A stretch of DNA of 64,000 bases from Anoplopoma fimbria. Its lineage: Eukaryota; Chordata; Actinopteri; Perciformes; Anoplopomatidae. Below the pieces are notes generated by a model. The model searched no databases, was not told the origin of the DNA, and saw nothing but the letters and a program-made list of their open reading frames with translations. Shown one piece after another: positions 45,311 through 56,799 of this stretch; within the stretch, counting starts at the first letter, position 1, and every line of letters begins with the position of its first letter. The stretch spans positions 23,037,052 through 23,101,051 of the forward strand of contig NC_072472.1 in the NCBI RefSeq assembly GCF_027596085.1, given 5' to 3'. The position numbers and the translations under genes are program-made.

Positions 45311-48300
45311 ATGACTGACTGCTGCGCCGCAGCCAACTGTGATTATCAGCCGGGAGAATCAGAAAACTCTCCTCCTCCACTTTTCAGCTTCCCCTTGGAC
45401 CCTGAGCGGTAAGATCTGTGCTTATTTCATTGAAATGTGGGTGAGAAAAGAGCCACTGAGCATGCAAAATGAATGTGTTAGCTAGCCGCTGTTAGCACTG
45501 GCGCTAGCTTAACATCACGCTGGCTAACAGTGACACAACTCTGTGGAAAATGGCGCAGACAACGTTACTCTGGAGAGAAAAAGTCCGAGTGAAACAGACT
45601 CAGTCCACTCAGCCCGACCCGGAGACCGACACTAAAGTGTGATATTGGCTGATATCTGTTCATCTTTGCGTTTGGTTATTTCACAAACGAAGAGAAAACA
45701 TAGTTTAAAACTTTTTTTTTTAGTGCTGTAATTTAAATTGCCATCGGTACACGACACCGACCGTCTCCACAGTGTGGTAACAGGAGCAGAGCCGCTGGTT
45801 AGCTTAGCAACATTCACACACTTTACTTTGAATAAAGCTGTTTTAATTGTGGATTCCAATCGGAGTTCATCACATTGCGTTTTAATGCAAAGCTTATTGC
45901 ACAATATCAATGTAAACTTATATTTACGTAGTTTTAACAGGTGATGTCCATTTGAATAAGCAGCAGTCTAGCGCCCCCTTTTATTATTATTTATTATATT
46001 CCTTTATTCCTTTATTGATCCCCATGGGGGAAATACAGACAGACAATAAATACACATACTATACAACTACACAGACAATAAATACACATACTATACAACT
46101 ACACAGACAATAAATACACATACTATACAACTACACAGACAATAAATACACATACTATACAACTACACAGACAATAAATACACATACTATACAACTACAC
46201 AGACAATAAATACACATACTATACAACTACACAGACAATAAATACACATACTATACAACTACACAGACAATAAATACACATACTATACAACAAAATGTTC
46301 TCCCTGCTGCCTCTAAACTGTGTGTGCTTTCACTCTGCGATTGCGGTAGTATTGTGCAATAGGAGTCTAATGTTACATAAAAATCAGAGGAATTAATTTA
46401 AGGGCCGGGATTGAATGACTGCAGCAGTTCAGCTGGCTGTATTACAGCAGTGTGCCTGTAGACAGGAAATGTAACCTCCAAGCCACAGGAGAAACTAACA
46501 GATCACGGGCTATGAAAACATTTCACATCCAGCCTGCAATGAGTTCCTATTTCTTCGGCCCCTCCGTCTAATCTGTGTACTCGTTTTATATCTTGAACCG
46601 CCACCCACCCAATATTGTGTTAAATTGAGAGACGTAAATCACATTTCCTTGTAGGCAAATCCACCCACCTTTTTAGTCTGTGCATATTCATTAAAATCAT
46701 CTGAAAGAAAGGGAAGGAATTGCGTTATGAAAGTTGAAACAATCAAAGCAAAGAACTCATTTAAATCATGGAAGATTTTCAGCAATCAATCACACCTTTT
46801 TGTTCTTTCATTTAAAATAGTTTTTTATCACCGCCAACACTGAGGCAGGGTTATGTTACAAATGCATTTAACCAAAGCAGGCTTGTATCAATCAAGTGTA
46901 TAGGTGGGTGTACTTAATCCATGTAATTGTAGCAATCATGACATCTTGAAGCATACCCACAGAATCAAATCATCTCTCACAGGGTTGTATATGATTTTAT
47001 GTCCGTCTGAAAAGGTATTTGAACTTGTGTTTTCACAGTGATTAAGCCTAGCATTCTATTCACAACAAATGGCAGTTTAAGTTCAAACTAGCCAATAGAG
47101 TGGTTTGGACCAATGTAATAATATAGTGTCTGCATACACTTGCAATAACATTAATACATTTTTTTCACTAAGTAAGCATGTTAAATTCTCTGAAATAAGA
47201 ACAGTTTTATTATTGAAATTATTATTTAATATATTGTTGTTGTTTTTCCGCTGTAGTTCTTCTGCCTTTTCATGTGTCATTGCGTTACAAAATAGATCCA
47301 GAAAGTAGTCTAGCTCAAGCAGTCATGTCTATTATCTATAGGATACCATTTAGACATACTGCTATGGGAACATTTCAGTGGTGGCATTTAGTAGTGCAAA
47401 GAGCCACCACGCTCACCCACAATCATCACAATGAACAGTTCTGAAATTGAAGCAAACTCTTTCAAAAGCCTTCAAGAGCTTTTGTCTGTGTGTCTGTTGA
47501 GTCATTATTTAATATAAGAGTACAGAATAATCATTTACAAGCTTTTTGACTAATTAATTTACATATTATGGTTTATGACTCCAACAATTTTTTCCCTTTC
47601 CCTCCTGAATTTTTCAGATGCAAACAATGGTTGAACAACTGTCATCGCCAAGATCTGTCATCAGAATCTCCTGAGCAGTTGCATAAGCTGTACAGACTGT
47701 GTGCAAAACACTTTGAGCCCTCTGTGATCTCTCATCAGGTAAGAAGCAAATATATTGGCCATAACCCTTTGTGTATTTATAATAATACTAACAATTGTCA
47801 TTTTCCTCCTGTTTTGTTATTGTAGTACCACTAGTGCGGTTCTTAGTGAGCAAATACTACATATTTCCATAACATAATAAGGATAAACTGGATTACCAGT
47901 TTGTTAGGGTTAACCTGATCAATCTAATGCAGCTTAATACTACAGCCAAGTAATAATGCCTATCTTTGTGAAGCCTATAATATTAAAACACACAGGTGTT
48001 TTTAATGTAACTTATGTACATGCACAAGGTAGAAACACATCTGTGCAATCAATCAATGTAATGCAATCACATCACATGCAACTCAATGTATGTGGTTGGG
48101 TTTAAAATGACACCAACTTCCTAATAAAACAGCATCTTAAACACTTTGGTTTATTAAAGGGTTTGTCAATGCAAAAATGTGGGTCAGTAAAAGTCACATT
48201 TATATTTAACAGCTGTTCAAATTAATATTGGTTTACCCAGTGATGCCCAATGCTACTTTATACGTAGTTAGATTTCTTAAGCCCCCAAAAAATCTTTGTT

Positions 48301-56799: not shown

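What the first reader, a model, noticed from the sequence alone, without database searches (positions are those of the whole stretch)
45311..56799. A single gene encoding one THAP finger and four tandem THAP12/hAT-transposase units
Every THAP12 protein I know has one THAP finger and one hAT-derived unit of about 600 residues. Here the same family architecture continues through three more full-length or near-full-length units. All 11 exons join in frame, giving 2461 aa. The six inter-unit introns are only 104-281 nt and hold no AATAAA, THAP exon or obvious promoter. This would be a large, repeat-built domesticated transposase protein with possible multivalent binding.
Basis: partly seen in the sequence, partly recalled or inferred. 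Interest (0 to 1): 0.92.

Follow-up and report, generated by a model that had tools for sequence, protein, structure and literature searches.

The report
One gene chaining four dead transposases
A fish gene, so far only listed as "uncharacterized", spells one THAP zinc finger (a DNA-binding type) and four consecutive copies of a former jumping-gene enzyme that appears to have lost a key catalytic residue; the four-in-a-row design is kept in teleosts from eels to perches (its first three copies also in gar), and it likely works as a gene-control scaffold rather than as an enzyme.

Summary
In detail: 11 exons at 45311-56799 join in frame (introns GT-AG) into 2461 aa, one THAP finger plus four units 23-27% identical. 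It is not a sablefish oddity: of 138 orthologues listed ("si:dkey-250d21.1", uncharacterized; percomorphs to eels and a mormyrid), 135 hold four units. Gar has U1-U3 and ends in residues matching the mini-exon before U4. 18 of 19 rows tagged only "lgn" carry all four units in one frame on 7.7-10.0 kb contigs, which I read as spliced transcripts.

The giant has THAP12's five-exon plan with its last two exons present four times, each time as a phase 0-0 module. A predicted unit structure matches Hermes hAT transposase first, yet no unit keeps the aligned DDE set.

Each unit forms one ancient clade. Most likely role: a nuclear, THAP-tethered, catalytically dead multivalent scaffold (function inferred). 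U1-only isoforms may coexist. New variant of a known kind; no description found in the library searched.

The parts
45311..45408 (+). exon 1: start codon and first half of THAP finger
   Evidence: THAP domain 58.3 bits over cut-off 23.9 in P0001
47618..47738 (+). exon 2: second half of THAP finger (LCAKHF)
48387..48494 (+). exon 3: AVPTIF motif and basic stretch
48599..48635 (+). exon 4: mini-exon of module 1 (37 nt)
48792..50590 (+). exon 5: unit 1 (U1), 599 full codons
50829..50859 (+). exon 6: mini-exon of module 2 (31 nt)
51141..52912 (+). exon 7: unit 2 (U2), 590 full codons; its AlphaFold2 model matches Hermes first
53035..53083 (+). exon 8: mini-exon of module 3 (49 nt)
53203..55001 (+). 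exon 9: unit 3 (U3), 599 full codons
55106..55142 (+). exon 10: mini-exon of module 4 (37 nt)
55265..56799 (+). exon 11: unit 4 (U4), 510 full codons and stop
38957..43344 (+). neighbouring single-unit THAP12 gene, 5 exons (38957-39042, 40749-40866, 41152-41250, 41362-41398, 41528-43344), 718 aa; same exon phases as exons 1-5 of the giant gene
   Evidence: its unit matches DUF4371 at 35.5 bits, cut-off 32.1

Best explanation
This is one gene whose predicted 11-exon message encodes a THAP zinc finger followed by four hAT-transposase-like units, none of which appears to keep the catalytic DDE set, and it is likely a nuclear regulator in which the finger would tether a covalent chain of four dead transposase folds to DNA as a multivalent scaffold. 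Shown: the exon series, the four homologous units, the repeated symmetric exon module, all four units in order in teleosts from eels to perches, no Asp at the aligned second catalytic column in any unit. Inferred: a THAP12-like gene duplicated in tandem and, in an early ray-finned fish, its last two exons came to be present four times, each inner stop replaced by a splice donor (mode and order of these steps are inferred). Inferred: nuclear place and DNA binding (from the THAP finger and from THAP12, reported as a nuclear promoter-binding activator). Inferred: scaffold action, with U1 and U2 (the best kept units) as the main binding faces and U3/U4 as looser parts. The covalent chain would replace the self-association by which hAT transposases build multimers (recalled).
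Confidence: 0.6

Rival explanations
1. The working product is a THAP12-sized protein of THAP plus U1; intron retention or early polyadenylation after exon 5 ends it, and U2-U4 are read rarely.
For: Reading on past exon 5 gives a stop after five residues (VSGFS). 10 of 25 proteins hold U1 alone, some from loci that also have the long form (Cyprinodon LOC107101786, P0064 and P0155). U1 is the best kept unit.
Against: U2 is kept almost as well as U1 (36.1% against 38.9% invariant columns) and all four units stay open and in order in the teleosts compared. 18 of 19 lgn-only rows are the long form (the lists are capped, and the length limits exclude short forms). Both forms can coexist.
Confidence: 0.15
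2. Separate tandem genes: each unit is its own gene, and databases have fused them.
For: Tandem paralogues are common, and THAP12 itself lies as a separate gene just upstream. Two inter-unit introns hold a TATAAA string.
Against: No THAP motif and little room between units (introns 104-281 nt); mini-exon phases repeat in all modules; continuous frames on contigs of 7.7-10.0 kb in 18 rows.
Confidence: 0.02
3. A still mobile or recently mobile hAT element array, not a host gene.
For: The U2 model matches the Hermes fold and the genome holds many related hAT-type copies (73 scored matches, of which 67 lie outside the two THAP12 genes and U1-U4).
Against: One locus among those matches, introns, catalytic columns broken in every unit, orthologous in teleosts and gar.
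Confidence: 0.01
4. A cytoplasmic stress-kinase regulator (P52rIPK-like binding of P58IPK/DNAJC3), with four units raising avidity.
For: Some orthologues are named '52 kDa repressor of the inhibitor of the protein kinase', the older role of THAP12, mentioned in PMC13404843 section 9 (passage).
Against: The same preprint reports that THAP12's complex I role is nuclear and independent of PKR and DNAJC3, though it also saw THAP12 in the cytoplasm; the name of the fish proteins is by similarity.
Confidence: 0.12

Closest known systems
THAP12 (PRKRIR, P52rIPK, DAP4)
   Same: THAP finger of the same exon plan, mini-exon of 37 nt, one large last exon, homologous unit (U2 33% identical), adjacent in the window
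   Different: THAP12 has one unit (718 aa here); this gene has four units, 2461 aa, and is a separate paralogue
si:dkey-250d21.1 / LOC uncharacterized proteins of teleosts
   Same: the same gene: P0001 100% identical, four units
   Different: database entries without a described architecture or function; the name is found in two papers only, in an expression and a proteomics list
Hermes hAT transposase (2bw3, 4d1q, 6dwz, 8sjd)
   Same: fold of the U2 model: RNase H-like core with helical insertion
   Different: no DDE set, THAP finger instead of BED (the BED finger of Hermes is recalled), four units in one chain, host gene
THAP9 / P-element transposase
   Same: THAP finger joined to a transposase-derived body (recalled)
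   Different: P-element body, not hAT; one unit (recalled)

Membership tests
THAP12 family | N-terminal THAP (C2CH, AVPTIF) finger | tested here: met
   PF05485 58.3 bits, cut-off 23.9, in P0001; motifs in exons 1-3
THAP12 family | hAT-like body with DUF4371 | tested here: met
   PF14291 44.3 bits, cut-off 32.1, in P0001 (31.9, just under, in P0114), lying in U2. Alone, U2 gives 27.5 bits (under the cut-off) and U1, U3, U4 none; U1, U3, U4 match THAP12's unit at E 4e-58 to 4e-76
THAP12 family | exon plan: phases 2,0,0,1 and large last exon | tested here: met
   same phases in the window's THAP12 and in exons 1-5
THAP12 family | a single unit of about 600 residues | tested here: not met
   four units
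THAP12 orthologue proper | is the THAP12 gene itself | tested here: not met
   a single-unit THAP12 lies next door and a second on C1 (49% identical to it); the two form one clade, 100/99, apart from U1-U4. Naming them THAP12 rests on architecture and recall; mammalian THAP12 was not compared
hAT transposase | hAT fold | tested here: met
   U2 model, Hermes first in Foldseek and VIA, with low TM-scores; model pLDDT 71.4
hAT transposase | DDE catalytic residues | tested here: not met
   columns read against copy L019: D1 is Q/D/D/E, D2 is L/L/M/L, E is D/C/D/N in U1/U2/U3/U4; that these columns are the DDE sites rests on recalled hAT motifs
hAT transposase | Pfam hAT C-terminal dimerisation domain | tested here: inconclusive
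   no hit at E 0.1 in the 5 units scanned; the window's THAP12 gives none either
hAT transposase | terminal inverted repeats and target site duplication | not tested
   looked for inverted repeats of 25 nt or more in 44000-58500 and found none; short ends were not sought

The most novel reading that the evidence does not exclude
A covalent transpososome: four dead hAT folds in one chain pack on each other as hAT multimers do, giving a single polypeptide that holds several DNA or protein sites at once under one THAP finger; evolution has turned an oligomeric transposase into a one-gene multimer, begun before gar and teleosts parted and kept since.
Probability: 0.25. Interest if true: 0.85.

Novelty: new variant of a known kind. 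Interest (0 to 1): 0.62.

Why it matters
The domesticated transposases I know of (recalled) are single bodies joined to a DNA-binding finger. Here the transposase-derived body itself is repeated inside one gene as a phase-matched two-exon module, and the result is kept across teleosts, with three units visible in gar. That gives a natural test of what extra copies of a transposase fold add to a DNA-binding regulator, in a gene that zebrafish work already meets as an unannotated responder (PMC8063052). Since THAP12 has just been reported as a regulator of complex I genes and a disease gene (PMC13404843), its giant fish neighbour is a ready comparison.

Full report
WHAT IS THERE. The eleven exons join in frame to 2461 aa with GT-AG introns throughout. 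Exons 1-3 give the THAP finger; then follow four copies of a two-part module, a mini-exon (37, 31, 49, 37 nt) and a large exon (1799, 1772, 1799, 1535 nt). In every module the mini-exon length is 1 and the large exon 2 modulo 3, so each module begins and ends in phase 0. The units are 23-27% identical to each other, with BLASTP E-values of 2e-51 or better.

WHERE IT CAME FROM. 1966 nt upstream on the same strand lies a complete single-unit THAP12 gene (38957-43344, 718 aa, five exons) with the same exon phases and a 37-nt mini-exon. Its unit matches U2 best (33%). The THAP fingers are 47% identical over 90 columns. So the giant gene has the plan of THAP12 with the last two exons present four times. 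The assembly (652 Mb) holds a second single-unit THAP12 on C1 (49% identical to the first; the two form one clade, 100/99), and among the 73 matches no further four-unit locus but many weaker hAT-type ones. Duplication of a THAP12-like gene followed by multiplication of the 0-0 module is the simplest inference; the order of splits among U1-U4 and THAP12 is not resolved.

HOW WIDELY IT IS KEPT. A search restricted by length to about 1353-4306 aa returned 169 proteins (120 listed), topped by the sablefish protein P0001 at 100%; a profile of basal teleosts returned 166 (120 listed). Of the 138 different proteins listed in the two, 135 have four units and three have three (a unit counts if more than 250 of about 595 profile positions are hit, and a few of the 135 have shortened units): P0112 ends early, P0119 and P0120 are Syngnathus isoforms that lose most of U2. 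Species run from percomorphs, cod, smelt, salmonids, herrings and milkfish to eels, bonefish and a mormyrid. Spotted gar (P0139, 1985 aa) has U1-U3 at 69, 65 and 43% identity, and its last residues align without a gap to the end of exon 9 and the start of mini-exon 10, so U4 may follow. In trees of 95 and 39 rows each unit is one clade with full support, with gar inside for U1-U3. The units therefore parted before gar and teleosts did; U4 is covered only by inference.

IS IT ONE MESSAGE. 19 listed rows carry only the source tag 'lgn' (17, P0136, P0160). 18 of them encode all four units, on contigs of 7,662-8,332 bases (17 rows) or 9,973 bases (P0136, with the long otophysan spacer), leaving 342-1147 bases outside the reading frame, against 4,103 bases of intron between start and stop in the sablefish gene (11,489 bases less 7,386). 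The frame is continuous over the unit joints (17 rows checked), while each of the six introns, if kept in sablefish, would bring a stop within 3 to 70 codons. I read these as spliced transcript contigs; that is an inference from length and frame, since the records were not seen. P0160 holds U1 alone on a 17.2-kb contig and ends just behind the donor site, as unspliced DNA would. Against a single product: 10 of the 25 proteins hold U1 alone, several ending just past the exon 5 donor, so a THAP12-sized isoform by intron retention is possible. A zebrafish protein under the same gene name, F1QRG5, appears in a proteomics table of zebrafish eyes (PMC5595969, passage seen), and the mRNA as an unannotated responder to flame retardants (PMC8063052, passage seen); the zebrafish protein itself was not among the rows I saw.

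WHAT IT LIKELY DOES. Invariant columns over 21 fishes: THAP 25.6%, U1 38.9%, U2 36.1%, U3 18.0%, U4 9.8%; the stretch 561-600 in U1 is 85% invariant and 95% identical to gar (gar is absent from U4). The strongest constraint thus lies in the bodies of U1 and U2, not in the finger, as expected if binding faces rather than catalysis are kept. THAP12 itself is reported as a nuclear, promoter-bound activator of complex I assembly genes, independent of PKR and DNAJC3 (PMC13404843: abstract, sections 10 and 11, passages), and as a DNA-binding partner proposed to tether LDOC1 to chromatin (PMC12853606: passages). I therefore commit to a nuclear, THAP-tethered, multivalent scaffold; function, partners and packing of units are inferred and untested.

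NOVELTY. The gene is annotated in many fishes as uncharacterized. Library searches for its name, THAP12 with hAT, zebrafish, P58IPK or epilepsy, THAP12 alone (15 of 40 listed), PRKRIR with teleost, THAP domain with domesticated transposases and tandem domesticated transposases (12 of 33 listed) showed no title or start of abstract describing this architecture. A survey of transposon-derived factors (PMC10027918, passages) has no mention of THAP12, and a review of transposon-derived vertebrate genes (PMC3424704, passages) none of PRKRIR. The library lacks most subscription papers.

Noticed in passing
   Followed up: yes
39366-39601 and 46039-46291: The same 32-bp minisatellite (7.4 and 7.9 copies, 100% match) sits in intron 1 of both THAP12 and the giant gene, next to a similar GATCCCCATGGGGGAAAT stretch; likely two insertions of one repeat family.
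   Followed up: partly
50699-50823: A 125-base TG repeat fills about half of the intron before exon 6 and ends just short of its acceptor; its length might affect splicing of the U2 module.
   Followed up: no
P0124-P0138 (otophysan orthologues): In catfishes, characins, electric eel and carps 646-1336 residues separate the U3 and U4 hits (15 of 15 proteins); the four spacers looked at are low-complexity. Salmonids and mudminnow have shorter ones at the same place.
   Followed up: partly
P0119, P0120 (Syngnathus isoforms X2): Annotated isoforms that lose most of U2 in frame, by a join from inside exon 7 to exon 8 as read in P0119.
   Followed up: partly
G000:C1:21749965-21751740 (L011): Second single-unit THAP12 of this genome, with a glutamate/alanine repeat tail.
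   Followed up: partly
387-1031, 7356-7817(-), 24773-25141, 27214-27606: Neighbouring genes by Pfam: glycosyltransferase family 43, glycosyl hydrolase family 35, oligosaccharyl transferase STT3.
   Followed up: no
P0023, P0049, P0053, P0054, P0056, P0082, P0086, P0087, P0088: Nine orthologue entries lack most or all of the THAP finger and begin at later methionines or, in medaka (P0082), with unrelated residues; a finger-less isoform is possible.
   Followed up: no
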